A stretch of DNA of 64,000 bases from a virus: IMG/VR virus record IMGVR_UViG_3300035698_017294, positions 42,198 through 106,197 of that record. The stretch is one strand, 5' to 3'. Of the stretch, positions 24,170 through 44,342 are shown one piece after another. The notes under the pieces were generated by a model. That model was not told the origin of the DNA. It saw only the letters and a list, made by a program, of their open reading frames with translations, and did no database searches. Position numbers and translations under genes: made by a program. Position 1 is the stretch's first letter; the number at the start of each line of letters is the position of its first letter.

Positions 24170-25321
24170 TTAGTCTTTATTCTCTGCCTTTTCTTTTTTA
24201 TCCCACCACATTAAGTATTTTGATGACTTCGCTTTAAATCCTACGGACTGGTCTAACTCGGATCTCCATACAAATCCCTCGCGCATAACGTTTGGGTTAA
24301 GGTAAGACATGGTATTACTTTCAACGTTTTTACCATCTGCCTCATCGAGGACTTCTTCTACGGTATCGTATAGCTTGCAGCCGGTATGAAACAATGGAAC
24401 CATTTCGAATCCATTTTCAATGCAGTACCAGTCGAGGTCTTCGTAGTTTAGGTACGCGCCGGTAGTTAAATTTTTAACCGAGTAAACATATAACTTTATA
24501 GCGGGCAGTTCGTAGATGTTCTTTTGGATTCCTGGGCCTACTAATTCGCCCTGTACTGCTATTGCTGGGTATTTTTTTGAATTGGCTTTTAACTTTTCCT
24601 CAATACGATTCTCTAAAGCATATCTCCACCACGTAGAACCGTCAGGTTTTGGACGTTGGAAGTTGTGCGAGTATACACGGAACTTCGGCCTTTTACCTTT
24701 TGCGCGGTACTCATAAGTAGCTGCTTGTCCCTCAAGTTTTTCTGTCTTGTAGAATCGGTGATCGGGGTAACACTTCTGAATGTGAGCAAATGCTGCCTGA
24801 ACATTAGTCTCGTCTGATTTGCTAATGTCTTCGGGATACAGGTTCTTCCTATTAGGATTACCCTTCATCCAGAAGTATAGTTTACGAAACCACTCTTTCT
24901 TAAGCATGTACTTTAACCATGCTGGCCGTTTTTGCGGCTTTAGCATTTCAGCCAAATATTCGGGATCGTACTTGCGTACTTCTAGTGTGTCAGTTACATC
25001 CACACCTTCTTTTACTTTTACCTTTTTAGGTAAAATAGGGGTTGAGAATACAATGCCCTGACTGAACACTCCTGCCATTTTCATGTTACGGATACGGAAT
25101 CCGTTCCATTTTGGGGAGAAGCAGTTGCTACGTAAAAATTCAAATTCTTGTTTGATTGGTAGCAGTGTATCATATTCACAGTAGACTGCAAGATCGCCTA
25201 CTTGAAATTCCCCTTTTCCGACAATTACCTTCCACCCAAGGATAGATGCTAGCTCTATTCTATCCTTATTGGCGATTGGTTCCAATGCCGTTATCTTCTG
25301 TATCGTAGCTAATTTTCGCAT
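24170..25321 (-). CDS. Rnl5/DraRnl-like RNA ligase
   Basis: A 383-residue nucleotidyltransferase with the KxDG-type motif I written as EKLEGQA (Lys195). An N-terminal domain of about 110 residues starts MRKLATIQKITALEPI and has VGDLAVYCEYDTLLP, the OB-like module of Deinococcus DraRnl-type RNA ligases, which seal nicks with a 3'-OH RNA strand. Further motifs are VQGELVGPG (motif IIIa region), REGFVWRS (motif IV) and GFKAKSSKYL (motif V). It would act with Pnkp and Rnl1 at 38-40 kb. The gene overlaps the HD gene at TAATG. Confidence 0.85.
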   Translation of the reverse strand: MRKLATIQKITALEPIANKDRIELASILGWKVIVGKGEFQVGDLAVYCEYDTLLPIKQEFEFLRSNCFSPKWNGFRIRNMKMAGVFSQGIVFSTPILPKKVKVKEGVDVTDTLEVRKYDPEYLAEMLKPQKRPAWLKYMLKKEWFRKLYFWMKGNPNRKNLYPEDISKSDETNVQAAFAHIQKCYPDHRFYKTEKLEGQAATYEYRAKGKRPKFRVYSHNFQRPKPDGSTWWRYALENRIEEKLKANSKKYPAIAVQGELVGPGIQKNIYELPAIKLYVYSVKNLTTGAYLNYEDLDWYCIENGFEMVPLFHTGCKLYDTVEEVLDEADGKNVESNTMSYLNPNVMREGFVWRSELDQSVGFKAKSSKYLMWWDKKEKAENKD

Positions 25322-27888: not shown

Positions 27889-27890
27889 AA
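27354..27890 (+). CDS. Intron-borne helix-turn-helix protein, probable homing endonuclease
   Basis: A 178-residue protein coded opposite to the intron RNA. The N-terminal third is a helix-turn-helix (SEMYLTQKLNPYEISNILDCDHKTVRRYLKLHKI). The rest (AAHIAYLCEGWHTNKTNGLYFCNTDPNLNDLMLWCL...) resembles a single degenerate LAGLIDADG repeat of the kind seen in small endonucleases that act as dimers. Catalytic acidity is not certain (CEGWH). Its stop codon ends two bases into the 5' exon, so the ORF fills the intron up to the splice site. Confidence 0.65.
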   Translation: MKNISKDVLSEMYLTQKLNPYEISNILDCDHKTVRRYLKLHKIQLRTASEYNYLPRVSHTNPTKIEYMQPKSIAAHIAYLCEGWHTNKTNGLYFCNTDPNLNDLMLWCLKEIYNAKTIRLRIMAKSLESAKHLLTFYPNTPVSVELDRKTPILRIVSGGKTFARDFIKNAYDIIDSLG

Positions 27891-30615: not shown

Positions 30616-30626
30616 AAAACTAAATA

Positions 30627-30668
30627 CTCCCGCCAGGGTTCGAACCTGAAACCGGCGGCTTAGAAGGC
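30627..30668 (-). tRNA. 3' half of a tRNA-Arg (TCT) remnant
   Basis: A loop CTTCTAA (anticodon TCT), 3' anticodon strand GCCGC, T arm TCAGG/CCTGG with loop TTCGAAC, and acceptor CGGGAGT-A are present. The matching 5' half (ACTCCCG and GGCGGC) is not found; the site is instead joined to a GGCGCATGCGCC palindrome at the end of the VWA gene. Looks like a truncated gene. Confidence 0.55.
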
Positions 30669-30683
30669 GCGCATGCGCCTTAT

Positions 30684-31325
30684 TTATTTATCTTCTTTAA
30701 GATCAGCATTCATATCTATTGCACCGCCACCACGATAACTGGCAACGGCATTCGATGCGGTCATATATAAGTCACCTACACTAGAGCCCTTCGTTGCTCC
30801 TCGTGCGGTTTCGGCGCTAAAGTTCATAGCTCCAAGGTGCGCCATATTATAGTGAGCGAAGTTTTCTGCAGATACTCCCATATAAATGAATTCCCAATTA
30901 TACTTTTCTTTTTGATGGGCAATCATTTGTGTTAGCCGCTCGGCTGTAATTTCTTTGCTGACATTCTCCTCGCCATCCGTAGTAATCATAACGAGTACTT
31001 TTCCAGGTCGCTTGCTTTTCGGCAATCCAGATAGGCGTGCTCCTACAGTATTTATAGCCCGGCCAACCGCATCTCTAAGGGCAGTACAGCCTCTTGGGTA
31101 ATATATGTCTGCAGTAAGCTGTGGCACGTCATTAATGTTCACACCATTGTGTATCACATTATATTCGCTATCGAATATCACTAGGGTTAAATTTGCTTCA
31201 CCCGGTTCACTGCGCTGCCGTTTCACAAATTCGTTAAAACCTGTAAGTGATTCGGCAATAGGTGTTCCACTCATTGATGCACTGCGGTCTAAAACGCATA
31301 CAATCTCTGTTAAATTCTGATTCAC
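30684..31325 (-). CDS. VWA-domain protein (TerY/TerF-like)
   Basis: A 213-residue von Willebrand A domain with a complete MIDAS: DRSASMSG (residues 13-20), the Thr of RGCTALRDAV, and TTDGEEN. The compact single-domain layout resembles TerY-type proteins encoded beside TerD homologues, and the next gene upstream has a TerD-like C-terminus. It may act as a metal-dependent adaptor for that protein. Confidence 0.85.
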   Translation of the reverse strand: MNQNLTEIVCVLDRSASMSGTPIAESLTGFNEFVKRQRSEPGEANLTLVIFDSEYNVIHNGVNINDVPQLTADIYYPRGCTALRDAVGRAINTVGARLSGLPKSKRPGKVLVMITTDGEENVSKEITAERLTQMIAHQKEKYNWEFIYMGVSAENFAHYNMAHLGAMNFSAETARGATKGSSVGDLYMTASNAVASYRGGGAIDMNADLKEDK

Positions 31326-34187: not shown

Positions 34188-34204
34188 ATTTCCTCTAATC
34201 TGCA

Positions 34205-34280
34205 GTGGGCGGAGGGGGACTCGAACCTAATATGTATGTTGCTTAGCAGTAGATACATACCCTAACTAAACTAAAGCTTA
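34205..34280 (-). tRNA. Degenerate tRNA-like element (Ser GCT-like loop)
   Basis: A T loop TTCGAGT followed by CCCCC and a loop CTGCTAA like that of tRNA-Ser(GCT) are seen. The anticodon region is instead held in a GTATGT/ACATAC hairpin with a long loop, the T stem is unpaired on one side, and no 5' acceptor strand is found. Probably a decayed gene. Confidence 0.4.
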
Positions 34281-34292
34281 AAGCTACGTATC

Positions 34293-34682
34293 TTATTCCA
34301 CAATTTTTTGTTTTAATTCATCAAATGTTTGATGATGATAGCTCCGTTTGTGTGTGGATGGATCCACATGTACGAACACTATTTTATCAATTGAACAGAT
34401 GACAGTGTGATCTGTTTTATTGCGTACTTCGCAACAAACAGTATATGAAGTCTCGCCTACGTCGATAAGGTCGATACCAATCTCAATAAGGTCACCCTTA
34501 CGTGCGGGTTTCTGAAAGTTCACTTCGGATATGAGTTTTGTGACAATGCTTTTCTTGCCTGTCTTATACATAACCCATGCAGCCGCTTCTTCATCCACCC
34601 ATGCTAGTAATTGTCCACCGAATAAAGTATCATGGCTGTTTAAGTCTTGATACCTAATCAAATGGCTTGTAGTAAATTCCAT
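34293..34682 (-). CDS. Hotdog-fold acyl-CoA thioesterase
   Basis: A 129-residue YciA/BFIT-type hotdog protein: an N-terminal RYQDLNSHDTLFGGQLLAWVDEEAA (catalytic Asn/Asp and the hotdog helix), then NFQKPARKGDLIEIG and YTVCCEVRN. Such enzymes hydrolyse acyl-CoA thioesters in the cytoplasm. It is unusual cargo for a phage and its role is unknown; it could alter lipid or acyl-carrier pools. It overlaps the DNA ligase gene by one base. Confidence 0.85.
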   Translation of the reverse strand: MEFTTSHLIRYQDLNSHDTLFGGQLLAWVDEEAAAWVMYKTGKKSIVTKLISEVNFQKPARKGDLIEIGIDLIDVGETSYTVCCEVRNKTDHTVICSIDKIVFVHVDPSTHKRSYHHQTFDELKQKIVE

Positions 34683-35977
34683 TACATCCCCCTCGTTTTG
34701 CCGTGCACATGTTTTACTGTTGGAAAGCGTAACGAATATTGCTTCGTTTTCTGGTCTCGAGTTTCTTCAAAATACTGGACTGTAATTAGGTTGCCAATTA
34801 TAGCACCGGGGTTGTAGTGGTATTCTTGCCTCTGTTCCAAAGACCATCCAGACCCCACGCCAACCTCATTGTCGCGATACATTATAATTGCTTTAGTCAT
34901 TGTAGTTATTGTGTCTTCTAGTCCGGTTATTTTATTAATGATGCGGAACGGCCCAGACTTGATTCTGGTTACTGTAAACTCTGCATCGTGGAACTTTTTA
35001 AGCTTTAACAGGTTTTGCGTACGCTTACCTTCGTACGGCACATCTTTGCGAAGCATTGCACCTTCCCAGCCCTTTTTATTAGCGGCCGCAAAGAAGTCTT
35101 CAAGGTCTTCAACGCTGTGAACTATACGCTGGTTTAATGGTTTTAGGATCGTATTTTTGCGACCAATTGCTTCATATCGTAAGATGCGCTTTGTTAAGTC
35201 GGGGGATTTCTTTTTACCCTCAAACTCGTCAAGTGTTAGCATATCAAAAATCATGTATCTGGGATTTTGTATCACATGCTTTTTCTTGCGTATCTGCTTC
35301 ATTACGCTAGCAAAGTCTTCATTGCCGTGATCATCTATGATACATATTTCGCCATCAAAAACAGTATTACGTAGATCTAGTTTTTTAATTTCTTCAATAA
35401 CCAGCCCGAGTGTTTCTATGGGCTTGCCTGTTCTAGTCCACGCTTTAATATTTCCATCAGCCCCAACTATGATAATGCAGCGCACACCATCAAGCTTCCG
35501 TGATATATACCAGCTAGTTTCATATTTGCCGAACGTTACTCTGTGTATAAACTCTTTGTACTTCTCGGCTAGCGCAACCTTAAACTCCTTTATAGAGCCG
35601 GGCCAGACTTGGTTAATTTGTTTCACACCCAATCGGACCTTTAGGTTTTTATCCAACATCATGTGGACGATGTCTGCATATACTGGATACTCAGCTATAA
35701 AATGGTTAATATAGTTATGTGCCTCGTGCCCTGTTATTTTGCGGGAAGCTAAATCATCAAGCAGTGAGAATATATCCAAATGTATTTCACAGTCATCTTC
35801 CATATACGCTGCCTTCGTTAATGCTGCAGATGTTATCCCGTATGTCATATCAGGATCGTGTGCGTATATAAAATACTTTTTCAAATCTTCGTAACTTGCC
35901 AAGATGATTTTCTTAGCTGTCATCGAATTAGTTGTGTTTAGTTCATCTAAACATTCTTGTAATCTCTTTAAACTCAT
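34682..35977 (-). CDS. lig: ATP-dependent DNA ligase
   Basis: A 431-residue ligase. Motif I is SRKLDGVRC (Lys161), motif III region is VFDGEICI, motif IIIa YMIFDML, motif IV EGAMLRK and motif V LLKLKKF, followed by an OB-fold with GSGWSLEQR and VQYFEETRD. The N-terminal 150 residues are helical, as in T4/T7-like ligases of medium size. It seals nicks in replication and recombination. Confidence 0.92.
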   Translation of the reverse strand: MSLKRLQECLDELNTTNSMTAKKIILASYEDLKKYFIYAHDPDMTYGITSAALTKAAYMEDDCEIHLDIFSLLDDLASRKITGHEAHNYINHFIAEYPVYADIVHMMLDKNLKVRLGVKQINQVWPGSIKEFKVALAEKYKEFIHRVTFGKYETSWYISRKLDGVRCIIIVGADGNIKAWTRTGKPIETLGLVIEEIKKLDLRNTVFDGEICIIDDHGNEDFASVMKQIRKKKHVIQNPRYMIFDMLTLDEFEGKKKSPDLTKRILRYEAIGRKNTILKPLNQRIVHSVEDLEDFFAAANKKGWEGAMLRKDVPYEGKRTQNLLKLKKFHDAEFTVTRIKSGPFRIINKITGLEDTITTMTKAIIMYRDNEVGVGSGWSLEQRQEYHYNPGAIIGNLITVQYFEETRDQKTKQYSLRFPTVKHVHGKTRGM

Positions 35978-36002
35978 ATTTTCCTCTATGTAAATTGTGT
36001 AA

Positions 36003-36075
36003 CGGGCCCGGGAGGAGTCGAACCTCCGACACCGCGGTTAACAGCCGCGTGCTCTGACCACTGAGCTACAGGCCC
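36003..36075 (-). tRNA. tRNA-Asn (GTT)
   Basis: Acceptor GGGCCTG/CGGGCCC, anticodon stem CGCGG/CCGCG with loop CTGTTAA, T arm GGAGG/CCTCC, discriminator G73. Confidence 0.93.
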
Positions 36076-36090
36076 TTTATAAATTGTAAA

Positions 36091-36152
36091 TAAAAAAAAG
36101 CACACAGCTAATTCCGCCTACTCGTAAGAATAAGCCGAATTAGCCGTATACA
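36091..36152 (-). terminator. Probable terminator between tRNA-fMet and tRNA-Asn
   Basis: On the minus strand a long hairpin GGCTAATTCGGC/GGCGGAATTAGC is followed by GTGTGC and a T8 run. Outer bases AAATTGTA/TACAATTT also pair. It may end part of the RNA-rich transcript or serve as a processing signal. Confidence 0.55.
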
Positions 36153-36186
36153 ATTTTATGCTTTGTCTATGTCAAAGATCTTTCTA

Positions 36187-36260
36187 TGGCGGGGACGGGA
36201 TTTGAACCCGTGACCTTAAGGGTATGAGCCTTACGAGCTGCCAGACTGCTCCACCCCGCT
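36187..36260 (-). tRNA. tRNA-Met (CAT), initiator-like
   Basis: Loop CTCATAC in stem TAAGG/CCTTA. Initiator features are an unpaired first position (A1-C72) and an A11-U24 pair in the D stem GAGC/GCTC; but the three G-C pairs at the base of the anticodon stem, needed for strong initiator activity, are not there. Confidence 0.85.
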
Positions 36261-36810
36261 GTGTACTAGCTTTACTTCTTGCGACTGGTCGTTAGTAATA
36301 TCGCATTGGCCGGTTTTCCGCCTTTGCACTAATACCTGCGCAGCTTGGAAAGCGGAGCGGGTGATCGTGGTTGGCGGAAAAAAGGCCTGGAGGCGATTAT
36401 TACCGGCGATCAATATCGCGTCTTCAATAATCGTCCGAGACGTTACGTCCCAGAATGTGATAGCCTAAAGCTAGTTAGTTTTACTTTTTGGCGGTACCCC
36501 TCTACAACGATAGGTTGTCGATAGATTGTTCCCGAGCGAATGCGAGGGAAAATCTGGCGATAAGAGGTGGTTCGCCAACTTTGGACTTGTTGGGGATCCG
36601 GATCCCCGATCGGGGAGCCCCGCACGCGTCGGGGCGCCTGCGGTCCGGAGAGCCGGAGACCTGGAAAGCCCATTTTGGAACAAAACGTGTTCCCGCGAGA
36701 CGTTACGTCTCACAGCATTACGAATCACCGTGGGCTGCACTAGCCTGAACTCGGCTACTACAGATTACGCTGATTTTGACCGTAACACATATCTAAATCT
36801 AAAACTAAAG
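36261..36810 (-). ncRNA. Structured intergenic region with GC-rich palindromes
   Basis: No convincing gene. Visible structure: TTTTCCGCC/GGCGGAAAA and CGATTATT/AATAATCG inverted repeats; two copies of GAGACGTTACGTC (36437 and 36697, the second a near-perfect palindrome GAGACGTTACGTCTC); and a dense palindromic block at 36592-36634 (GGGGATCCGGATCCCC, CCCCGATCGGGG, CCCCGCACGCGTCGGGG). A minus-strand AAAGTAAAACTAACTA resembles a segment of the adjacent tmRNA. Probably part of a large folded RNA. Confidence 0.45.
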
Positions 36811-37133
36811 TGGAGGCGAAGGGAGTTGAACCCTTGTCCACACGATAACGAAACATGCTGTTTCTTACAGGCTTAGTTAGTTTTTACACTTTTATTTGTT
36901 AATCCGGGGCGGTTCTGAAACTAACTTAGTAGTCCCCGGCGTTGGCCATTTGTTTAGCCGTGGTCTAGCGGCTTTCCGATCCGGCGCCGATTCCCTAACA
37001 TCGGAGTCTTAGGGTCGACGGCTACTTAGTTAACCTAAGCGGCTAGTGGTAAATATTCGTCAATTACATTGAAAGGAGTATCATGCCTGTAGCATATATC
37101 GATAGAATCGCATGTCGAAACCAATGCGCCCCC
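36811..37133 (-). ncRNA. ssrA: tmRNA (transfer-messenger RNA), one-piece
   Basis: Rescues stalled ribosomes and tags their products. The 5' end GGGGGCG pairs with 3' CGCCTCC; GGTTTCGACATG matches the canonical tmRNA 5' domain, and GGACAAGGGTTCAACTCCC matches the T arm region. Between them an open frame ends DEYLPLAA then TAG (37061-37035), the expected ...LAA degradation tag. Pairings such as CCGGGG/CCCCGG fit the pseudoknots. About 323 bases, close to the bacterial size. No CCA is encoded. Confidence 0.9.
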
Positions 37134-37149
37134 ATAAAATAATACAATT
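37134..37149. other. Short A+T-rich linker before the tmRNA 5' end
   Basis: It separates unit A from the tmRNA; no promoter is obvious, so the tmRNA is probably processed from a longer transcript. Confidence 0.35.
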
Positions 37150-37322
37150 TACAACTGCTGTGCTGTTACGCCAAAGACGGTGGGAAAGCGCTCCCAATGC
37201 CGCGGGCTCCCACGCCTTTTTCTCGGGAGTACCATTTAAGTTACCGCTCCTCTGGTTCGTTGCAGATGCAGGCCATCGGTGTCACTCTTTAAAGGGTGGC
37301 TGCTTCTAAGCCTACCTCGCCG
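37150..37322 (-). ncRNA. RNA unit A, resembling the 23S rRNA GTPase-associated centre
   Basis: On the minus strand GTAGGCTTAGAAGCAGCCA (37315-37297) followed by TTTAAAGAGTG (37293-37283) matches, from memory, the helix 43/44 sequence of bacterial 23S rRNA that binds L11 and elongation factors. Short flanking GGT/ACC and GGC/GCC pairs could form the closing helix 42. The unit then carries CCTGCATCTGCAACGAACC and ends GCACAGCAGTTGTA, both shared with unit B. Confidence 0.6.
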
Positions 37323-37363
37323 CTGTAAGGTGTATTCATATGTTGTTGTGTAAATTTATGTGA

Positions 37364-37540
37364 TACAACTGCTGTGCCGAGTTTAAGTCGACTAAAGACC
37401 GCTATCCAGCTGTGATAGCTACGGACGGTTCCTCCTTCACAGGGAGGAAAAAATTATCCGCGACAATAGGTCGTTGCAAATGCAGGCTACTGCCATCAAC
37501 ATTAAAGGCTCGCGTAATTGCGTCAACACCTGGCCGTTGT
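37364..37540 (-). ncRNA. RNA unit B, paralogue of unit A
   Basis: On the minus strand it starts with GGCCAGGTGTTGACGC, then CCTTTAATG, GCCTGCATTTGCAACGACC and ends GCACAGCAGTTGTA. The order and the two conserved blocks match unit A. Its start also resembles the 5' strand of 23S helix 42 (GCCAGGATGTTGGC). It includes a CCTCC/GGAGG hairpin. No protein-coding capacity seen. Confidence 0.5.
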
Positions 37541-37561
37541 ATAGATAAATTAAAAAGAAGC

Positions 37562-37637
37562 GGAAAGCACATGAAGTAGTTGGTACATCATAAGTGTACT
37601 GCACATTGTGCAGTTAGAAGGAACTTCATGTATGGCC
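37562..37637 (-). repeat. Covarying hairpin element, copy R1
   Basis: Stem ACATGAAGT/ACTTCATGT (37569-37577 and 37623-37631), with a conserved AGAAGGAAC just before the 3' strand and an inner hairpin CTGCACA/TGTGCAG. The flanks GGAAAGC and ATGGCC are shared with R3. Confidence 0.65.
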
Positions 37638-37642
37638 ACTAA

Positions 37643-37714
37643 TGCGCCGCCCCGGACTTGAACCAGGAACCGACCTCCCCACGGAGGGTGCTCTATCTAT
37701 TGAGCTAACAGCGC
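37643..37714 (-). tRNA. tRNA with uncertain anticodon (GTG by position)
   Basis: Acceptor GCGCTGT/GCGGCGC, D arm GCTC/GAGC, T arm CCTGG/CCGGG with loop TTCAAGT. The anticodon arm reads ACCCT, loop CCGTGGG, GAGGT, with one mismatch and C33, similar to the loop of the tRNA-His-like gene at 19.5 kb. The discriminator is A, not the C of tRNA-His. Confidence 0.6.
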
Positions 37715-37722
37715 GAAATATA

Positions 37723-37797
37723 CGGAAGGCGTTCGAAGTAAGGTTTTTAAGGATTCGCCCGCCGGGCGAATAAGTAGAAGGAACTTCGAACATAGCC
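37723..37797 (-). repeat. Covarying hairpin element, copy R2
   Basis: Stem GTTCGAAGT/ACTTCGAAC (37731-37739 and 37783-37791), conserved AGAAGGAAC, and an inner hairpin ATTCGCCC/GGGCGAAT. The stem differs from R1 and R3 but stays fully paired. Confidence 0.65.
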
Positions 37798-37815
37798 GTA
37801 ATAAAAACAAAAACA

Positions 37816-37916
37816 GGAAAGCAGTTAAAGTAGGTTATATAGCGGGTCTCCAACGCCTCGATAGACGCCGAGCGCCCCGCTGGGCTTTATAAGTAGAAGG
37901 AACTTTAACTATGGCC
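37816..37916 (-). repeat. Covarying hairpin element, copy R3
   Basis: Stem AGTTAAAGT/ACTTTAACT (37823-37831 and 37902-37910), conserved AGAAGGAAC, and inner pairs AGCGGG/CCCGCT. Longest of the three copies. Confidence 0.65.
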
Positions 37917-37921
37917 TGTAG

Positions 37922-38018
37922 TGGGGCACCCAGGACTCGAACCTGGAACCAACAGAGTCCGCAGCGTCATACAGCGCCGCTTACAGTCAGCTGCCCTAGC
38001 CAATTGAGCTAGCGCCCC
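37922..38018 (-). tRNA. tRNA-Tyr-like (GTA), oversized
   Basis: Acceptor GGGGCGC/GTGCCCC, D arm GCTC/GGGC, T arm with loop TTCGAGT, and loop ACTGTAAG containing GTA after T33. At 97 bases it is about 12 longer than usual; the anticodon stem pairs poorly and the variable region holds repeated CAGCG sequences. Function uncertain. Confidence 0.6.
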
Positions 38019-38023
38019 TAAAC

Positions 38024-38051
38024 AAAAAAAGCGACTCATAACATGGTCGCT
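38024..38051 (-). terminator. Rho-independent terminator
   Basis: On the minus strand AGCGAC, a 10-base loop, GTCGCT, then TTTTTTT. It ends the short transcript from the promoter at 38181-38209. Confidence 0.8.
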
Positions 38052-38174
38052 TTAAGATTTCAAATATTGCCATGTTTTATATATCTACTTGAAACCTGCA
38101 TTTCTCCCTAGGACGGATTGGTCTTCCGGGCGAATGGCTGGTTTATATGTAAATAATACATGGAGTGTTTTCAT
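38052..38174 (-). ncRNA. Predicted small RNA between a strong promoter and a terminator
   Basis: Transcription from the promoter at 38181-38209 would begin near 38174 and stop at 38024, giving about 150 bases. The only ATG frame (29 codons) would be leaderless and has no ribosome-binding site, so a non-coding RNA is favoured. Confidence 0.5.
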
Positions 38175-38180
38175 GTCATT

Positions 38181-38209
38181 AGTATACTAAATTTAGATCT
38201 GCTTGTCAA
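38181..38209 (-). promoter_or_regulatory. Consensus sigma70 promoter
   Basis: On the minus strand TTGACA (38209-38204), 17 bases, TATACT (38186-38181). Near-perfect match to the bacterial housekeeping promoter. Confidence 0.78.
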
Positions 38210-38211
38210 GT

Positions 38212-38588
38212 AAAAAACCGGCGAGGCTGGCAAGAGTGGATAGACCACCCCTGCCGATCGGGTATCAACCGCATGCACTCGCCCCTTATAGCTTACCAAA
38301 CTATCTGTAAAACTGGACTCACAGAACCGCCGATGCAAATAAACGAACCAGTTCCGGTCCGCATTCCACCGATAAGCCCGTGCAGACTCGCGGTATTATT
38401 GTTTCACAGGTGCACGCTCTGTGAATTTTTAGTCCGCATAAAGGCCTTAATTTATAACCGATAACACCCTCGCATTTGGGGTGCCTCTCGGTACGATCCC
38501 GTAGCCCAGATTACAGTATAGTTGGCCCACAAACGCGTCGTGAAAAATGTATTAACACGACGGCAAGGGCAGGTAAACCGTATACGAT
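38212..38588 (-). ncRNA. Predicted structured RNA of about 375 bases with its own terminator
   Basis: It runs from the promoter motif at 38594 to a hairpin GGCAGGGGTGG/CCACTCTTGCC with T6 (38212-38217) nearby, enclosed by GGCGAG/CTCGCC. Internal hairpins include CGTCGTG/CACGACG and TCACAG/CTGTGA. No reading frame with a ribosome-binding site is present. I could not match it to a known RNA family. Confidence 0.5.
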
Positions 38589-38593
38589 AGTTT

Positions 38594-38603
38594 TCTTATA
38601 CCA
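38594..38603 (-). promoter_or_regulatory. Extended -10 promoter motif (TGGTATAAGA), copy 2
   Basis: The identical 10-mer as at 23639, 44991 and 59609, placed directly upstream of the structured RNA. The -35 region is an A tract, which may act as an UP-like element. Confidence 0.5.
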
Positions 38604-38672
38604 GCTTTTTTTTTATTTTTTTTACTTTAACACCCTGGCATAGCCCTATGAATAAAGTTCTCATGTATCACC

Positions 38673-39560
38673 TTAAAAATTACCGTAGTTAACCTGTAAG
38701 CAAGTTAATCCGAGTTCCTTTCGCCACATATCTACAACTTGATCACGATCGTCCAGTACGAAGTCAACGTAATACTTGCCCTTCACATGTGCATCATATA
38801 GCTCACGCTTTACAAGGCTGTCCTTGCGATCGTCGCCAGGGTGCCGCATGAAAAGATCGGTATACTTAACTTTGTTATCAAACAACCATTCACGGGTGAG
38901 TGTCTCACATGATCCGTCGCGCCCAGATAAAAGTATCACGTGGCGAGTCGGATCTGCCATAATAAGGTCGTAAATAGGCTGACTAAGCGTGTCTAGCTTA
39001 ACCTTCTGGAATTCAAATGGCCCGCGATTACCGCGATGCAGCGCAAGAGTTCCATCAAGATCACAAATAATCGCACGTGGTAGAGCAAGATCCTGTACCA
39101 CCAAGTCAAGTTCAACATCTGGTTCTTTGATAAAGCTATCGTGGAAATCACGTATCACCTTTTCACCGACAGAGTTAGGGCAAACTAGGTCTCGGCGGAT
39201 GCACTCTTCTATAGGTACACTAAGGAAGTCCGTGTTGAGTTGTGCTACAACTGGATTTTTGCAACCCTCTTCCTTGTTGATCTCCTGCGCAATCTGCTGC
39301 ATGCGAGTCCAGTGCTTTGGGTGTAGATTTGTATCGTCTACAATAACACTGAAGCCCCCCTTTACTATTTGCTTTACCATCCAGTCGCGTGTTTTTAACA
39401 CAAGCTTTTCATTGTAAGGCGTCCACTTACCACCTAGCATCATACGCAGGTCGTCTTTGTTGACACGCTTGATCTGGCCAGGATGATCATTTACTTGTTG
39501 CTTCGCCCATGTCGACTTTCCCGACGCTGGAAGTCCCTTGACTACTATTATTTTCCTCAA
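38673..39560 (-). CDS. pseT: Polynucleotide kinase/3'-phosphatase (T4 Pnkp type)
   Basis: A 295-residue two-domain RNA-end-healing enzyme. The kinase has a P-loop GLPASGKST (residues 9-17) and DDTNLHP; the HAD phosphatase starts at about residue 165 with ICDLDGTLALHRG and later LLSGRDG and FVLDDRDQVV. It adds 5'-phosphates and removes 3' or 2',3'-cyclic phosphates left by anticodon nucleases. Its gene overlaps the Rnl1-like ligase gene by 74 bases, so the pair is coupled. Confidence 0.95.
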   Translation of the reverse strand: MRKIIVVKGLPASGKSTWAKQQVNDHPGQIKRVNKDDLRMMLGGKWTPYNEKLVLKTRDWMVKQIVKGGFSVIVDDTNLHPKHWTRMQQIAQEINKEEGCKNPVVAQLNTDFLSVPIEECIRRDLVCPNSVGEKVIRDFHDSFIKEPDVELDLVVQDLALPRAIICDLDGTLALHRGNRGPFEFQKVKLDTLSQPIYDLIMADPTRHVILLSGRDGSCETLTREWLFDNKVKYTDLFMRHPGDDRKDSLVKRELYDAHVKGKYYVDFVLDDRDQVVDMWRKELGLTCLQVNYGNF

Positions 39561-40611
39561 ACTTGATCCCCCTTTTTATTATTTTCCATATATACTCACC
39601 GGCTTTATCAAATCGCCTATCCCAAATATGGAACAGTAGGGCTGGATGCCGCTCCCGCTGAAAGCACTTAGCTACATACTTGCGCTCAGTATCAGGTGAA
39701 AGTTGCATCTTTTTAAGCGTGTTTAAGCCGCTGCGGATTAGATCGTCGTGCTTTTGATAAAACTTTGCGCATGTTTCGTCAATCCAATCCCAATGCTCTT
39801 CACCAGCGCCCTGGCGCAGGCTTTCAATCGGTTCACCTTTTATTATATAATCCAGCACAGTTTTCCCAGTCAGAGACATGCGTATACGTTGAAGCCGTTT
39901 GTACTCCTCGAACTTGACCTTCATTCTAAAGTCTTCTTTTGGGTAATACAAAACAAAGCCTTCTTTGTTCGTAAGATTAAGCTTTTGCGCACCAGCAAAG
40001 TCACGTGTTGCAATTGTATCAGCTGGGTATCGGTGCGGTGTGGGAAATCCTGGATTGTGATACGCTGTTTCTCCAAGCCTGTTGTCTATTGTTGCTACCA
40101 ATATAAGTTCTCTACGATCGCCGTAATTTATAACTAAACGATCTTCGGCGCGGTCGTCCGGATAGATGATTTCGAATTGATATGTCAACCCGTCTTTATA
40201 CTCTAAGCCACTATACTTTTCATTGAGGATTTTATTGGCTTGTATTGCCTGCTTGGAATCGAACGATCCACGTGTCGCTATGCCGCGGTAGTCACCATAG
40301 GCATACATAATGCCAGCATAGCCGTCCAGCTTATCGTATATTTCGAACTCGCTAATCGGTATTTCGCCGTCTTCTAGCTCATCAAAGTTAAAAAACTTGT
40401 ACAGCGGGCGAGAAATAACTTTCCAGTCATCATCAACAATCAATCCTCTGCACATCCTTACCGACAAGGGCCAGTACCAATCAAACATGGCCTTCTTGGT
40501 ATAGTTAAGTATCGATAATGGAATGGCTGGATCTGGATGATGCTGTAATCTTACGTACCCAGCATCCATCATATACTCAATATCTTTGCGCAGAGCGCCA
40601 TCGATAATCAT
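39487..40611 (-). CDS. rnlA: T4 Rnl1-like RNA ligase (tRNA repair)
   Basis: A 374-residue ATP-dependent RNA ligase. Motif I is IYDKLDGYAG (Lys94); RCMCRGLIV-like upstream sequence MCRGLIVDDDWKVISRPLYKFFNF is typical of Rnl1; motif III TYQFEIIYP, motif IV EGFVLYY and motif V MKVKFEEYKRL follow, then a C-terminal helical domain. With Pnkp it forms the classical phage tRNA-repair pair. Confidence 0.93.
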   Translation of the reverse strand: MIIDGALRKDIEYMMDAGYVRLQHHPDPAIPLSILNYTKKAMFDWYWPLSVRMCRGLIVDDDWKVISRPLYKFFNFDELEDGEIPISEFEIYDKLDGYAGIMYAYGDYRGIATRGSFDSKQAIQANKILNEKYSGLEYKDGLTYQFEIIYPDDRAEDRLVINYGDRRELILVATIDNRLGETAYHNPGFPTPHRYPADTIATRDFAGAQKLNLTNKEGFVLYYPKEDFRMKVKFEEYKRLQRIRMSLTGKTVLDYIIKGEPIESLRQGAGEEHWDWIDETCAKFYQKHDDLIRSGLNTLKKMQLSPDTERKYVAKCFQRERHPALLFHIWDRRFDKAGEYIWKIIKRGIKFEENNSSQGTSSVGKVDMGEATSK

Positions 40612-40630
40612 AATCTCTCCTTTGTTGTGA

Positions 40631-40648
40631 AAGGGAGATTGCTCTCCC
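40631..40648. terminator. Perfect hairpin AAGGGAGA/TCTCCCTT
   Basis: An inverted repeat (loop TTGC) directly upstream of the ligase gene, with only weak flanking T residues. It may be a weak terminator of the upstream unit or an RNA processing site. A 28-codon GTG frame (40654-40740) lies beside it but lacks a ribosome-binding site. Confidence 0.4.
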
Positions 40649-40730
40649 TTGTTCTATTCAAGCGCTGGTAGCATTCCCGTACGGCGACGAATTTCCTCGA
40701 ATGTGTGCTCTTTTACAATAGCACCTATGA

Positions 40731-41267
40731 TTACTCCCACATTAGTGGCTGGATCAGTTCTTGGTTCCATAGTCTTGCCCCCAAAATTATGTTGTTAGCA
40801 TGTTCTTCAATCGTTGTAGCTATCTTAGTTTCTATATCCGGCAAGGCCAGTTCCAGTTGTTTGCGCACATCGCATTCTCTTTTATATCCAGGCTCAATTC
40901 CTACACAAATGTACTCTTCTGCCCCCTCGAGATACATAGTAGCCACATTACGGCCTAGCTCGTACATGCAGATTGGTTGATCAGATGGGGCGTTGCAGAA
41001 CCACATGCTGAATATGTTACACATATCAAGCGCGTTAAATTCCCAAGTTATCTGCTGTTCTGCTGCATCAGGATTACCTATTGGAAAATTAGCTCGCCTT
41101 GGATTATATACGGTTAGGGGTGTTCCACCCTCAAGATTCCTAAGCCGCCCAATAACATCTGTCTGCCATTCTGGGCAGTTGGTTATTCCACCGGCTAAGA
41201 ATACTGACACGCTGTTTTGTATTAAGTTTAAATCATCTAAGCTATCTGGAGCTGTTATTACATTCAT
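40731..41267 (-). CDS. Nucleoside 2-deoxyribosyltransferase-like protein
   Basis: A 178-residue protein with VSVFLAGGITNCPEWQ near the N-terminus (substrate loop), a WEFNALDMCNIFSMWF segment and MYELGRNVATM with the catalytic Glu, the pattern of the Nuc_deoxyri_tr family. It may exchange bases on deoxynucleosides for salvage, or hydrolyse a nucleotide. It overlaps the small HAD gene upstream. Confidence 0.8.
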   Translation of the reverse strand: MNVITAPDSLDDLNLIQNSVSVFLAGGITNCPEWQTDVIGRLRNLEGGTPLTVYNPRRANFPIGNPDAAEQQITWEFNALDMCNIFSMWFCNAPSDQPICMYELGRNVATMYLEGAEEYICVGIEPGYKRECDVRKQLELALPDIETKIATTIEEHANNIILGARLWNQELIQPLMWE

Positions 41268-41673
41268 CTTCTTGTCCCTTTAAAAGTAAAAATACCGTCT
41301 CCGCTTTATCAACGAAGGCTTCATATTCAGGGCTGTCATCTATAATCAACCCCACTTTGAATTCTTTGCAGAGCTCGCCTTTGCTGCTCCACCACTCTTT
41401 GGCGTGTGTTTCCCAACCGCCTTTTTTATCTTTCCACAATTCTATCCCCTTGTGGCGCAGATAGTCAACTATAGAAATAACGTGCTGGTAATGAATTCCT
41501 CGCTCATACCCCAGCTTGGTAAGTTCGGCTACTACCTCTTCTCTAGACGGCCCAGACATTATAGATATCTTCATCCCTTGTGCTACAAGCATAGACGTGA
41601 TTATTTTAAAAACGTGCGGTGCCTCCGTTAGTACGCCGTGCAAATCAAACGCTATATGATCGAGGTCATCCAT
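41242..41673 (-). CDS. Small HAD-like hydrolase
   Basis: A 143-residue protein with AFDLHGVLTE (motif I DxxGVL), ISIMSGPSREEV (motif II), and LIIDDSPEYE (motif IV). It has no cap domain. Substrate unknown; in this setting a nucleic-acid-end or nucleotide phosphatase is possible. Confidence 0.75.
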   Translation of the reverse strand: MDDLDHIAFDLHGVLTEAPHVFKIITSMLVAQGMKISIMSGPSREEVVAELTKLGYERGIHYQHVISIVDYLRHKGIELWKDKKGGWETHAKEWWSSKGELCKEFKVGLIIDDSPEYEAFVDKAETVFLLLKGQEDECNNSSR

Positions 41674-42616
41674 GGTGATCCCTTATAAGGTTTATAACTA
41701 ACTCATTTACTTCGTGATACGCTGGCTTTTCTCGCACCCTCGGACATATTGAGAGGGTCTTGATTAAGTCTTCTAACTCTGTTGCTCGCTCCATTACTTC
41801 TTCAATGGTGCGCTTGCCTTGCTTTATCTCTAGTATTTCTTCTTTGTATGGCAACGGAAATCTTAGATAACCGTATGTGAGTAATTCAAACGCTTGCTTT
41901 AGCAGCCTAATCAAATGTGATGCAAACTTTGTGTCATAGCCGTGTTTTGCTACTAATTCTTTGCGATTAGAAAACTTAGAGTACCGACGGTGCAGCATGG
42001 TGAGTGCCCTCTGAACAGTAATGTTCTTTGCCATGTTCTGGTCGCCGATCTGGTAAAACGCGCCCCGCCGGTCTAGGCCAGCTTCGGTTAAAATCTCTGT
42101 TGGTAGTTCTATCAATATTTGTTTTTTATCTTCTACTGATTCCAGCTCATCGATACCGCGTTCTAACTCTCTATAATTCCCCGAACGTATCACCATCTTA
42201 TGTTTCTGTGATGATGCATATCCTATATACTTTTGAACCAGCCCTTTGTGCGGAAAGAGGTGTCTATAATTAATAAACTCCTCTATGAACCAAGGCTCTT
42301 GGTGTAGGATACTTTCTTCGGGAGCATACAGAAGTTCTAATACGTTAGGGTTATTCTGAAGAGCTAGTTTAGCAAACTTGCGGATGTCATAGTATGTAAC
42401 ATCAACTGCGTCTTTTGTGTTACGCCCGTCGGCAGCTTTATCTACTATACTATCATCAACTACATCTGCTCTATGCAAGCCGAACAACATTTCACTGTTG
42501 GGAATAAAAATACCGACGCGGTCTTCGTCGGACTCTGGCGTGTCGGTGCCGTATAAATGACTACCGCTTCTTATTAGGAAACAGCAGTTGTCTTTAGCTA
42601 ATTGTTGTGTGTTCAT
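41666..42616 (-). CDS. RlaP-like nucleotidyltransferase (RNA repair associated)
   Basis: A protein of about 316 residues. The N-terminal pol-beta-fold signature GSHLYGTDTPESDEDRVGIFI (G-S, then D-x-D) and VDVTYYDIRKFAKLALQNNPNVLELLY match the predicted nucleotidyltransferase family linked to RNA ligases (RlaP). It may add nucleotides to damaged RNA ends. It lies in the same minus-strand block as Pnkp and Rnl1. The ATG at 42616 gives an ATGA overlap with the upstream gene. Confidence 0.8.
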   Translation of the reverse strand: MNTQQLAKDNCCFLIRSGSHLYGTDTPESDEDRVGIFIPNSEMLFGLHRADVVDDSIVDKAADGRNTKDAVDVTYYDIRKFAKLALQNNPNVLELLYAPEESILHQEPWFIEEFINYRHLFPHKGLVQKYIGYASSQKHKMVIRSGNYRELERGIDELESVEDKKQILIELPTEILTEAGLDRRGAFYQIGDQNMAKNITVQRALTMLHRRYSKFSNRKELVAKHGYDTKFASHLIRLLKQAFELLTYGYLRFPLPYKEEILEIKQGKRTIEEVMERATELEDLIKTLSICPRVREKPAYHEVNELVINLIRDHHG

Positions 42617-42945
42617 AATCCCATTACTATCCATATCCAAATAATGTGCAACAGTTGGTCGTACATGATATATCCCATTGGGTATAACTCAGACCCCGGA
42701 GTCGCGTAGCGTTTAAAGCCGAACCGTTTTAAGAACCACCCTATCACATGGGTACGATCTAATACGAAATGTTGTATAGCGATCAATAAAAATTTCCACC
42801 ACACCATTCCTGGGACGAGCAGAAAGAATAACATGTAAATGACGATGTGAATTACGCATGCTTTTGTGTCCTTCTTTTTATTCAACGCTAAACTATCCGG
42901 CTGGAGCATCCAGTCTCCGATAAAATGTGCCATTAGCCAGTGCAT
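42613..42945 (-). CDS. DUF3307-like small membrane protein
   Basis: A 110-residue protein with the DUF3307 pattern: HWLMAHFIGDWMLQPDSLALNKKK, then two or three hydrophobic helices (CVIHIVIYMLFFLLVPG; FLLIAIQHFVLDRTHV; LLHIIWIWIVMGL). The function of this phage- and bacterium-borne family is unknown. Confidence 0.8.
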   Translation of the reverse strand: MHWLMAHFIGDWMLQPDSLALNKKKDTKACVIHIVIYMLFFLLVPGMVWWKFLLIAIQHFVLDRTHVIGWFLKRFGFKRYATPGSELYPMGYIMYDQLLHIIWIWIVMGL

Positions 42946-42970
42946 AGTTTGTCCTTAGTAATTTGTAAAT

Positions 42971-42998
42971 AAAAAAAAGCCCACCATAGTGGCGGGCT
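42971..42998 (-). terminator. Rho-independent terminator of the SPFH operon
   Basis: On the minus strand GCCCGCC/GGTGGGC with a short loop, followed by T8. It lies about 35 bases after the SPFH gene. Confidence 0.88.
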
Positions 42999-43031
42999 TA
43001 TGTCATGAAGTCAGTCGAAAAGAAGAGGAAT

Positions 43032-44342
43032 CTAAGGTTTCGCGGTAAGCGATTTGGATCCAGGATCCACATTTACATCTAGCCCGTTGAGGGCCTTGAT
43101 GACATTGATGTCCAACAGCTCTTTGATCTGAGCGTCGTATCCTGCCATTCCAGCGCTTCCGCCTTTACCCTTGGAACCGCCGCCGTAATCGATGTAATTT
43201 TGCGGAACAGCTCGTTTTGCTACGGCAGCAGCATTCGCAGCGTTCATAGCTTCCAGGGTTTTCATTTTTAACTCAAACCCACCATCGGCCATGAAGACGG
43301 AACGACGATAGTTCGCATCGGCTTTGGCTTCCAGATCTTTGGCTTTCTTGTAGTTTGAGGCTTCTTCGACGCGAATCTTGGATACGGTAAGCTTCTTAGC
43401 GGCTTCGATATTCGCCGTAAGTGAATCCGTACGGGCTTGTTCAATCACCGGGGCTAGGGTAGTCATCATTGCATATTTTGCCGTGGTGACATTCTTTAGC
43501 CCCTCAAATTCTGCTTCGGTAGCCCTTGCCTTAGCAAGCGAAGCCTGCGCGTTGGCAGTTTGGATGCTGGCGTTGATGTCTTTCTGCCGATCCTGCTGCT
43601 TTTGCACGCGGCTATCATATTCAAATTTAACAATATTGAACAAACCGTAGTCCATCCCAATGCCAAATTTTTCCCATAGCCCACCTTCGGAATTTGCGCG
43701 CAGTGGTGTGATACCATCAGCTTCATACAGAATGCGCGCGCACTTGCGCACCGTTTGCTTATGATTGCCGGATGTACTATCAACTACGATCTTTTCCAAT
43801 GTTCTGCATCGGTAATCGCCATGCAGCATCTGGTCATATACGTATTGATAAAACTTCTCGCGGCCGTTGCCCTGCCAGGTTTCCTGTGCTTCGAATATCG
43901 GGCCCGTTTTCTTTACGGCGTTAACAAATGCCGGCTGAATTAACTGTTTTGAAATTTCATCTGGGGTTCGGAAGTTGTGCTTGAATCGCAAGTCCTCACG
44001 AAGTGCATCAGTTGTAGGCATGTTGATACGGCAGGATCCCAGTAGGCCCGCAGTAGTAGCATCGTTGAACCGTGCTGTGATTGTGTCAGCCTCGGATTGC
44101 AGGAAATCGTGAGTGTAATTGAACTCAAATTTATCCGTGATGTCCATCATGTTGAAGTACGCGCCCGGGATGGATTCGACCTGCTGTTTACCAGTGTACA
44201 CCTGCTGTGTAACATGGTACCAACCACCCTCTACGGTATTGTAGCTTTTGACGCCTGCAACTACCGCGATAAACGCGACTAAGGCGAGGGCCCCAAGAAA
44301 GATCTTCTTTGATAAACCCATTGATTTCTTTTCGTTTTCCAT
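43032..44342 (-). CDS. SPFH/band-7 (prohibitin/stomatin-like) membrane protein
   Basis: A 436-residue protein with one N-terminal membrane helix (about residues 14-32, FLGALALVAFIAVVAGV), an SPFH domain, and a long coiled coil rich in Ala, Glu and Lys (residues about 250-370, with QKDINASIQTANAQASLAKARATEAE). The tail is Gly/Ser-rich. Phage SPFH proteins may organise membrane microdomains or control host proteases. The next gene upstream encodes another single-helix protein, likely its partner. Confidence 0.85.
   Translation of the reverse strand: MENEKKSMGLSKKIFLGALALVAFIAVVAGVKSYNTVEGGWYHVTQQVYTGKQQVESIPGAYFNMMDITDKFEFNYTHDFLQSEADTITARFNDATTAGLLGSCRINMPTTDALREDLRFKHNFRTPDEISKQLIQPAFVNAVKKTGPIFEAQETWQGNGREKFYQYVYDQMLHGDYRCRTLEKIVVDSTSGNHKQTVRKCARILYEADGITPLRANSEGGLWEKFGIGMDYGLFNIVKFEYDSRVQKQQDRQKDINASIQTANAQASLAKARATEAEFEGLKNVTTAKYAMMTTLAPVIEQARTDSLTANIEAAKKLTVSKIRVEEASNYKKAKDLEAKADANYRRSVFMADGGFELKMKTLEAMNAANAAAVAKRAVPQNYIDYGGGSKGKGGSAGMAGYDAQIKELLDINVIKALNGLDVNVDPGSKSLTAKP

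What the first reader, a model, noticed from the sequence alone, without database searches (positions are those of the whole stretch)
36811..37133. Phage-encoded tmRNA with tag ending DEYLPLAA
All tmRNA landmarks are present: paired ends, GGTTTCGACATG, the tag frame ending in LAA, and the T-arm sequence. Phage tmRNAs are uncommon. A phage version could mark proteins for a different fate or keep ribosomes free during mRNA decay.
Basis: partly seen in the sequence, partly recalled or inferred. Interest (0 to 1): 0.75.

Follow-up and report, generated by a model that had tools for sequence, protein, structure and literature searches.

The report
Phage tmRNA beside ribosomal-RNA mimic
This bacterial virus carries its own copy of the RNA that frees stuck ribosomes, which is known from a few percent of such viruses, and right beside it an undescribed RNA that copies a working part of the ribosome and turns up in many other viruses.

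Summary
Confirmed: ARAGORN and Rfam both call a one-piece tmRNA at 36808/36810-37133, minus strand, tag DEYLPLAA. It keeps the G3.U acceptor pair, T-arm, PK2, PK4 and the frame-setting bases. A relative at ~60% nucleotide identity keeps it in the same place with tag DKSYALAA. Phage tmRNAs are known (2.3% of isolates, PMC9004378), so this is a new variant of a known kind: 8-residue tag starting with Asp, PK1 region cut to 19 nt, the shortest of 75 compared. No SmpB in the record; RNA-repair genes flank the array.

The surprise lies 15 nt upstream: a ~180-nt RNA ('E1', 37149-37328) copies the L11-binding GTPase-associated centre of 23S rRNA around a foreign insert. At least 120 IMG/VR stretches hold its 3' motif, and isolates such as pf16, GAP32 and XacN1 carry it, often butting onto tRNAs. 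Covariation is strong. Rfam offers only a fragment of LSU rRNA. My literature searches found no description. Its function (L11 decoy?) is inferred.

The parts
36808..37133 (-). one-piece tmRNA (ssrA) gene of the phage
   Evidence: ARAGORN; Rfam RF00023 88.3 bits, E 6e-33; fold z -4.1
37035..37061 (-). tag reading frame GAC GAA TAT TTA CCA CTA GCC GCT TAG = DEYLPLAA*, preceded by UAAUU
   Evidence: ARAGORN coding part 73-99; sequence
37149..37328 (-). E1-A: RNA with the H42-H44 GTPase-associated centre of 23S rRNA split by an insert of about 113 nt; ends 15 nt before the tmRNA
   Evidence: family evidence
37363..37542 (-). E1-B: diverged, probably degenerate second copy (same 3' strand GCACAGCAGTTGTA, closing helix ATACAAC/GTTGTAT, H43 loop lost)
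   Evidence: by eye, low confidence
38181..38209 (-). sigma-70-like promoter TTGACA-17-TATACT upstream of the array (11 of 12 matches)
   Evidence: 7 sites found, 4.3 expected by chance; this is the best one; function inferred
37643..37714 (-). tRNA-His (gtg), upstream in the array
   Evidence: not among the gathering-score hits
36187..36260 (-). tRNA-Met (cat), downstream in the array
36003..36075 (-). tRNA-Asn (gtt)
38673..39560 (-). polynucleotide kinase-phosphatase (PNKP), RNA repair
   Evidence: PHROG 505 E 5e-84; Pfam HAD_PNKP
39487..40611 (-). T4 Rnl1-like RNA ligase
   Evidence: PHROG 562 E 4e-47; Pfam RNA_lig_T4_1
41666..42640 (-). RlaP-like RNA-repair nucleotidyltransferase
   Evidence: PHROG 388; Pfam RlaP
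24170..25321 (-). second RNA ligase
   Evidence: PHROG 968; Pfam RNA_ligase and PHA02142 OB-fold
34682..35977 (-). ATP-dependent DNA ligase; anchors the synteny with L034/L035

Best explanation
36808-37133 (minus strand) is a working tmRNA gene of a tailed phage. It would be transcribed as part of a tRNA/tmRNA/small-RNA array and trimmed like the tRNAs around it. Its CCA end is not encoded, so CCA would be added afterwards. Host alanyl-tRNA synthetase would charge it through the G3.U pair, and host SmpB and EF-Tu would carry it into ribosomes stalled on broken messages. Translation then switches to the internal frame, adds A-DEYLPLAA to the unfinished protein, stops at UAG and frees the ribosome; the LAA end sends the protein to Clp proteases. 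The phage probably gains ribosomes while tRNAs and mRNAs are being cut in the infected cell, because RNA-repair genes flank the same array. Shown here: gene identity, structural landmarks, conservation in a distant relative, context. Inferred: expression, charging, partners, benefit. A second, separate RNA, E1, ends 15 nt upstream. It carries a copy of the L11-binding GTPase-associated centre of 23S rRNA and most likely acts by binding host uL11 or another factor that recognises that site (function inferred, less certain than the tmRNA).
For: ARAGORN and Rfam agree. In a relative at about 60% nucleotide identity (two contigs, L034/L035, identical over the fetched stretch) the tmRNA lies at the corresponding place between PNKP and DNA ligase with tag DKSYALAA, 96.3 bits. 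PK2 (CCCUAA/UUAGGG with UCCGAU/AUCGGA) and PK4 (CCGGGG/CCCCGG with AGUUAGUUU/AAACUAACU) can form in the window copy. UAAUU and UAAAU precede the resume codon in the two phages; the -1 triplets AUU and AAU each score 90 in the E. coli KanR assay (PMC2481249, passage seen). PNKP, Rnl1-like, RlaP-like and a second RNA ligase lie in the same region. Virion and replication genes make it a phage. For E1.
Against: No expression, charging or tagging data. No SmpB in the record, which may be incomplete. PK1 looks lost: only 19 nt remain and no crossing 4+4-bp stems were found, but the same test found them in only 37 of 65 bacterial controls, so it is weak. A 5-bp hairpin UCAAU/AUUGA could hide the resume codon. 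PK3 was only partly identified by eye. The host is unknown, so dependence on host SmpB, AlaRS and Clp is assumed. E1-A alone does not fold better than its shuffles (z +0.57); its evidence is comparative.
Confidence: 0.85

Rival explanations
1. The RNA is a decoy or poison: its tRNA-like half is charged and binds SmpB, but with PK1 gone it resumes poorly and mainly blocks host trans-translation.
For: PK1 region is 19 nt, shortest of 75; resume offset 73 against at least 80 in all 77 unique bacterial tags. Phage DS6A carries little more than the tRNA-like domain, and such a molecule inhibits tmRNA (PMC4131195 and PMC11915505, passages seen).
Against: A complete tag frame with LAA end, stop, helix 5, PK2 and PK4 is kept. 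In E. coli PK1 can be replaced by a hairpin or single strand with tagging kept (PMC3968760, PMC4236655, passages seen). The relative has an 8-bp hairpin there.
Confidence: 0.12
2. The tmRNA sequence is an integration-site relic picked up by a temperate phage that uses host ssrA as attB.
For: Some phages integrate at ssrA (PMC3203893, passage seen).
Against: The gene is complete, not a 3' fragment; it is conserved in place in a relative at about 60% identity and lies inside an array of phage tRNAs. No integrase appeared among the proteins scanned, though not every ORF was scanned.
Confidence: 0.03
3. E1 is a relic of a captured rRNA gene without function.
For: It resembles 23S rRNA over only 30-43 nt, and E1-B looks degenerate.
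Against: Helix H42 differs in nearly every phage yet stays paired: 94.7% of cells paired over the whole structure, covariation score 0.542 against 0.132 in shuffles, 0 of 500 as high; own halves pair at 6.54 of 8 positions against at most 4.42 in 1000 swaps in an independently found set.
Confidence: 0.03
4. E1 does not bind uL11 but is bait for a host defence factor or toxin that attacks ribosomes at the GTPase-associated centre.
For: E1 lies in tRNA arrays (22 of 42 within 100 nt of a tRNA or tmRNA), here next to RNA-repair genes. The residues equivalent to A1067 and A1095 (numbering recalled) are kept (column 23 A in 40 of 40, column 57 A in 37 of 40); column 23 lay inside the search pattern, so its invariance is by construction, and column 57 lay in the motif by which the 3' half was chosen.
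Against: I know of no defence factor with that target (recall). The same bases are those needed for the L11-binding fold (recall).
Confidence: 0.25

Closest known systems
One-piece phage tmRNAs (mycobacteriophages Bxz1, Cali, Wildcat; Bacillus phage G), PMC4131195 (passages seen)
   Same: Full ssrA gene in a phage genome
   Different: Here an 8-aa tag starting with Asp, PK1 region reduced to 19 nt, RNA-repair genes and the E1 RNA beside it
Two-piece tmRNA of phage Melnitz (PMC9004378, passages seen)
   Same: Phage-borne ssrA, proposed to keep the hijacked machinery working
   Different: Melnitz is permuted and has a glutamine riboswitch; this one is one-piece, and Rfam shows no riboswitch in the window
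tmRNA and SmpB in huge phages (PMC7162821, passages seen)
   Same: Large phage with many translation genes
   Different: No SmpB found in this record
GTPase-associated centre (H42-H44) of bacterial 23S rRNA
   Same: E1 keeps H43, the H44 loop GCGUAA and an H42 helix; the L034 copy hits Rfam LSU_rRNA_bacteria positions 1096-1145, E 4e-4
   Different: Stand-alone RNA, insert of 48-339 nt between the two halves, U1101 replaced by A in 38 of 40
GOLLD and ROOL ornate RNAs near phage tRNA islands (PMC12286853, passages seen)
   Same: Non-coding phage RNAs in tRNA arrays, function unknown
   Different: No Rfam match of E1 loci to either; E1 contains an rRNA domain
T4 stable RNAs rnaC and rnaD in the tRNA cluster
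   Same: Stable RNAs in a phage tRNA cluster; role unknown as far as I recall
   Different: No GAC motif within 5 substitutions in the T4 stretch

Membership tests
tmRNA (RF00023) | Covariance model score above the gathering score | tested here: met
   88.3 bits against 47, full length
tmRNA (RF00023) | tRNA-like domain: acceptor stem with G3.U, GGUUUCGAC D-region, T-arm | tested here: met
   Sequence and Rfam alignment
tmRNA (RF00023) | Internal tag frame with hydrophobic end and stop codon in helix 5 | tested here: met
   DEYLPLAA*, ARAGORN; CUUAG-GUUAA-CUAAG around the UAG
tmRNA (RF00023) | Resume codon Ala, sometimes Gly (usual, not defining; PMC3968760) | tested here: not met
   GAC (Asp). 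Asp also in 9 of 18 unique phage and 3 of 77 unique bacterial tags in my samples, so it does not exclude membership
tmRNA (RF00023) | Pseudoknot PK1 upstream of the tag (usual) | tested here: inconclusive
   19 nt left, no 4+4-bp pseudoknot; 8-bp hairpin in the relative; but the test is insensitive: positive in 37 of 65 bacterial and 7 of 10 phage segments
tmRNA (RF00023) | Pseudoknots PK2 and PK4 | tested here: met
   Crossing stems of PK2 and PK4 found
tmRNA (RF00023) | Pseudoknot PK3 | tested here: inconclusive
   Only one stem (AGCCG/CGGCU) seen by eye in the sequence
tmRNA (RF00023) | SmpB partner | tested here: inconclusive
   No SmpB in the phage record nor in 20 other phage records; host unknown
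tmRNA (RF00023) | Charging with alanine and tagging in vivo | not testable with these tools
   Needs an experiment
Bacterial LSU rRNA (for E1) | GTPase-associated centre H42-H44 with covarying helices | tested here: met
Bacterial LSU rRNA (for E1) | Being part of a full 23S rRNA gene | tested here: not met
   67 of 67 loci show no more than 46 nt of 23S similarity within 2500 nt either side, as far as the stretches held reach
GOLLD / ROOL (for E1) | Match to the Rfam models | tested here: not met
   Only tRNA-type models and one tmRNA reached the gathering score in 13 E1 loci

The most novel reading that the evidence does not exclude
Many tailed phages encode a stand-alone RNA, E1, that carries a working copy of the L11-binding GTPase-associated centre of 23S rRNA with a foreign domain inserted in it, made and processed with the phage tRNAs (here directly before the tmRNA). 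It acts on host translation by binding uL11, the stalk base or a host factor that recognises this site. That would be a class of viral rRNA mimic not described before as far as my searches show. The existence of the class is far better supported than its function.
Probability: 0.6. Interest if true: 0.9.

Novelty: new variant of a known kind. Interest (0 to 1): 0.75.

Why it matters
For the tmRNA: it is a natural test of how little of tmRNA is needed (PK1 reduced, Asp resume codon) and it puts ribosome rescue and RNA repair in one phage region. For its neighbour: if phages widely carry a copy of the ribosome's GTPase-associated centre, they have a direct handle on uL11, translation factors or the stringent response. 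It would then be possible to test what some of the stable RNAs in phage tRNA arrays are for. Isolates carry E1 (pf16, CBB, GAP32, XacN1), so tests are feasible. The label 'new variant' is for the tmRNA; E1 by itself would be a candidate for categorically new.

Tried and rejected
Host identification failed. The nearest named phage DNA ligases are below 60% identity (best listed about 30%, Bacillus phages), there was no near DNA match for window 36000-44000, and the best phage match to the tmRNA itself was 36 nt of an annotated ssrA in uncultured phage cr52_1, E 0.09. Asp-first tags as a phage hallmark: 9 of 18 unique phage tags against 3 of 77 bacterial, but the phage set was fetched by homology and by a DNA pattern and holds several near-identical 24-aa tags, so I do not claim it. 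The H-type pseudoknot enumerator is too insensitive to prove loss of PK1. tmRNA and E1 are not generally coupled: tmRNA in 6 of 43 E1 records, one of them a weak 54.8-bit match. E1 as an L11 leader was rejected because no uL11 gene was found in any of the 29 phage records scanned (control 14 of 14). T4 rnaC/rnaD as E1: no motif. E1 in bacterial chromosomes: 0 of 296 genomes of one phylum hold the 3' motif; other phyla were not searched. E1-A single-sequence folding is not significant (z 0.57). PADLOC gave only weak Cas3-like matches for 25321-26013. Literature searches that touched E1 found nothing on a phage mimic of the GTPase-associated centre; the library lacks most subscription papers.

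Full report
Observation. ARAGORN finds a tmRNA at 36810-37133 on the minus strand with tag DEYLPLAA. Rfam RF00023 matches 36808-37133 over its full length with 88.3 bits, E 6e-33. The RNA folds better than all 100 shuffles, z -4.1. The window lies in an IMG/VR virus record of 106,197 bases. That record has a large terminase, tail sheath, DNA polymerase, sigma factor, ribonucleotide reductase with an HNH-bearing intein, primase and helicase. It is a tailed phage.

Anatomy of the tmRNA. The acceptor stem GGGGGCG/CGCCUCC keeps the G3.U pair (its role as the alanine identity element is recalled). The CCA end is not encoded (A-CUU). PK2 and PK4 stems are present, and the stop codon lies in helix 5. 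The resume codon is GAC, preceded by UAAUU; the relative has GAU preceded by UAAAU. The -1 triplets AUU and AAU each score 90 in the E. coli KanR assay (PMC2481249, passage seen). The review PMC3968760 (passages seen) says the resume codon is mostly Ala, sometimes Gly, that tags run from 8 to 35 residues, and that LAA is what ClpX reads.

Reduced PK1. The tag starts at nt 73 of the gene. In 77 unique bacterial tags the start lies at nt 80 or later, and in the relative at nt 81. The bacterial set is biased: 12 loci came from a DNA pattern and the rest are mostly the best-scoring 30 of about 40 genomes in each of three phyla; 96 of 103 held loci gave a tmRNA, 95 of them one-piece. Between helix 2 and the frame-setting bases only 19 nt remain, against 26-48 in 65 bacterial tmRNAs (12 of 77 bacterial and 8 of 18 phage ones were skipped because the script could not place the segment or it was too long). 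The relative has an 8-bp hairpin at that place. E. coli tmRNA still tags when PK1 is replaced by a hairpin or a single strand (PMC3968760, PMC4236655, passages seen), so loss need not mean loss of function.

Conservation and context. A scan with the phage's DNA ligase found two contigs, identical over the fetched stretch, at 53% protein identity. Both hold a tmRNA with tag DKSYALAA between PNKP and DNA ligase. Aligned blocks of DNA are about 60% identical, so the gene and its place have been kept over long divergence. The array carries about 20 tRNAs. Upstream lie PNKP, a T4 Rnl1-like RNA ligase and an RlaP-like nucleotidyltransferase; a second RNA ligase lies at 24170-25321. In T4 such enzymes mend tRNAs cut by host nucleases (recalled). 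SmpB was not found in this record nor in 20 other phage records.

How known is it. The tmRNA database of 2025 holds 79 unique phage sequences (PMC11915505, results section read). A survey found tmRNA in 402 of 18,146 phage genomes, given there as 2.3% (PMC9004378, passages). Huge phages carry tmRNA and SmpB (PMC7162821, passages). So this tmRNA is a new variant of a known kind.

The neighbour, E1. Directly upstream, 37149-37328, lies a 180-nt non-coding stretch (coordinates). It contains GGUAGGCUUAGAAGCAGCCACCCUUUAAAGAGUG, then about 113 nt, then CUUUGGCGUAACAGCACAG, closed by UUACAGC/GUUGUAA. The core pattern occurs once in the window and in 0 of 100 shuffles. The relative has a copy at about L034:12208-12400; the blast block is 71% identical over 180 nt. 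That copy matches annotated bacterial 23S rRNA at 93-95% over about 40 nt and Rfam LSU_rRNA_bacteria positions 1096-1145, E 4e-4. This is the GTPase-associated centre, where uL11, thiostrepton and translation GTPases bind (recalled).

E1 is widespread and is not host rRNA. A pattern scan of IMG/VR found 67 stretches. I examined 67 loci: the window, L034 and 65 of those stretches (two were contigs already held). None has more than 46 nt of 23S similarity within 2500 nt on either side. In 66 of 67 the second half lies within 900 nt. With at most 2 substitutions in the second half 64 remained, and 42 after removing near-duplicates. The closest tRNA or tmRNA is within 100 nt in 22 of 42; 33 of 42 have any in the fetched stretch. 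On 40 of the 42 (two with a one-base deletion left out), the structure is paired in 94.7% of cells, with 11 pairs changed on both sides and a covariation score of 0.542 against 0.132; 0 of 500 shuffles reach any of these values. The invariant loop bases were in the search pattern, and the 3' half was chosen for its likeness to the consensus, so their constancy is by construction. H42 columns 3-10 with 67-74 and pair 14-36 were not.

Independent test. Of 62 newly fetched loci, 51 carry the 5' half (at most 3 substitutions) within 900 nt upstream, against 0 of 62 shuffled upstream stretches. The two halves of 48 unique loci pair at 6.54 of 8 positions, against a mean of 3.70 and a maximum of 4.42 in 1000 swaps. 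Eleven of the 62 lacked the 5' half; 4 hits lay within 300 nt of a stretch end. In 296 bacterial genomes of one phylum the 3' motif was absent.

Isolates. Both halves with pairing closing strands are in pf16 (between tRNA-Asn and tRNA-Pro), XacN1 and GAP32, and in CBB (L185). DNA matches to one half or more also lie in Serratia phage BF, several Erwinia phages, XbC2, Astolliot, Milchi, UNO-G1W1, Aeromonas phage 4_4572 and Acinetobacter phage ME3. They are annotated as nothing or as hypothetical proteins. Some other hits in that collection are true 23S rRNA in short records, and I do not count them. By sequence, in XacN1 E1 is followed at once by a hairpin with a T-run, like a terminator, so it can be an RNA of its own.

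Mechanism of E1. The conserved bases are those of the L11-binding fold (recalled), H42 is kept only as a helix, and no uL11 gene was found in 29 phage records, the window's and L034/L035's among them. The best guess is that E1 binds host uL11 or the stalk base, either to change ribosomes or the RelA response, or as bait for a factor that attacks this site. The class is well supported; the function is inferred. E1 and tmRNA are not generally coupled (6 of 43 records), so their tandem here is one arrangement among many. Four literature searches that touched it found no description.

Verdict. The finding is real and its tmRNA is an unusual member of a known kind. The larger result is its neighbour.

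Noticed in passing
window 37149-37328 and 37363-37542 (minus); L034 about 12208-12400; pf16, CBB, GAP32, XacN1: E1, a phage RNA that mimics the 23S rRNA GTPase-associated centre, with a variable insert; widespread, often in phage tRNA arrays, no Rfam family of its own.
   Followed up: yes
window about 37905-37815, 37790-37735, 37631-37568 (minus): Three copies of a small structured motif between tRNAs (AAGTTCCTTCTA plus hairpin) whose closing stems differ but stay complementary (GTTAAAGT/ACTTTAAC, GTTCGAAGT/ACTTCGAAC, CATGAAGT/ACTTCATG); not seen in the relative's fetched stretch.
   Followed up: partly
window about 27926-27036 (minus): A tRNA-Leu gene, probably anticodon UAG (read by eye), split in the anticodon loop by a group I intron (Rfam 27114-27368); a 178-aa ORF with no Pfam match lies inside on the opposite strand (27354-27890, +).
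   Followed up: partly
window 36260-36800 (minus): About 540 nt of non-coding, GC-rich sequence after the tmRNA with two GAGACGTAACGTCTC-like hairpins; the relative has a similar hairpin after its tmRNA (L036 about 1920-1960).
   Followed up: no
window 38230-38640 and 38010-38210 (minus): Between PNKP and the array: a long structured-looking stretch, then a promoter-like site and a short reading frame or RNA (GGGAGAAAT...) with a terminator-like end, similar in layout to the relative (L036 670-1160).
   Followed up: no
L056, L059, L061, L064, L065, L067, L070, L074, L076 (also L060, L062, L077): A group of phage tmRNAs shares a long conserved tag, (D/A)VELSTMTFEDAMAFVGADYALAA and variants; a 23-24-residue tag kept almost unchanged suggests selection on the peptide itself.
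   Followed up: no
window 46027-49947 (minus): Ribonucleotide reductase large subunit with an intein that carries an HNH endonuclease.
   Followed up: no
window about 30621-30690 and 34204-34300 (minus): tRNA 3'-half remnants (T-arm and acceptor strand only), signs of turnover in the tRNA array.
   Followed up: no
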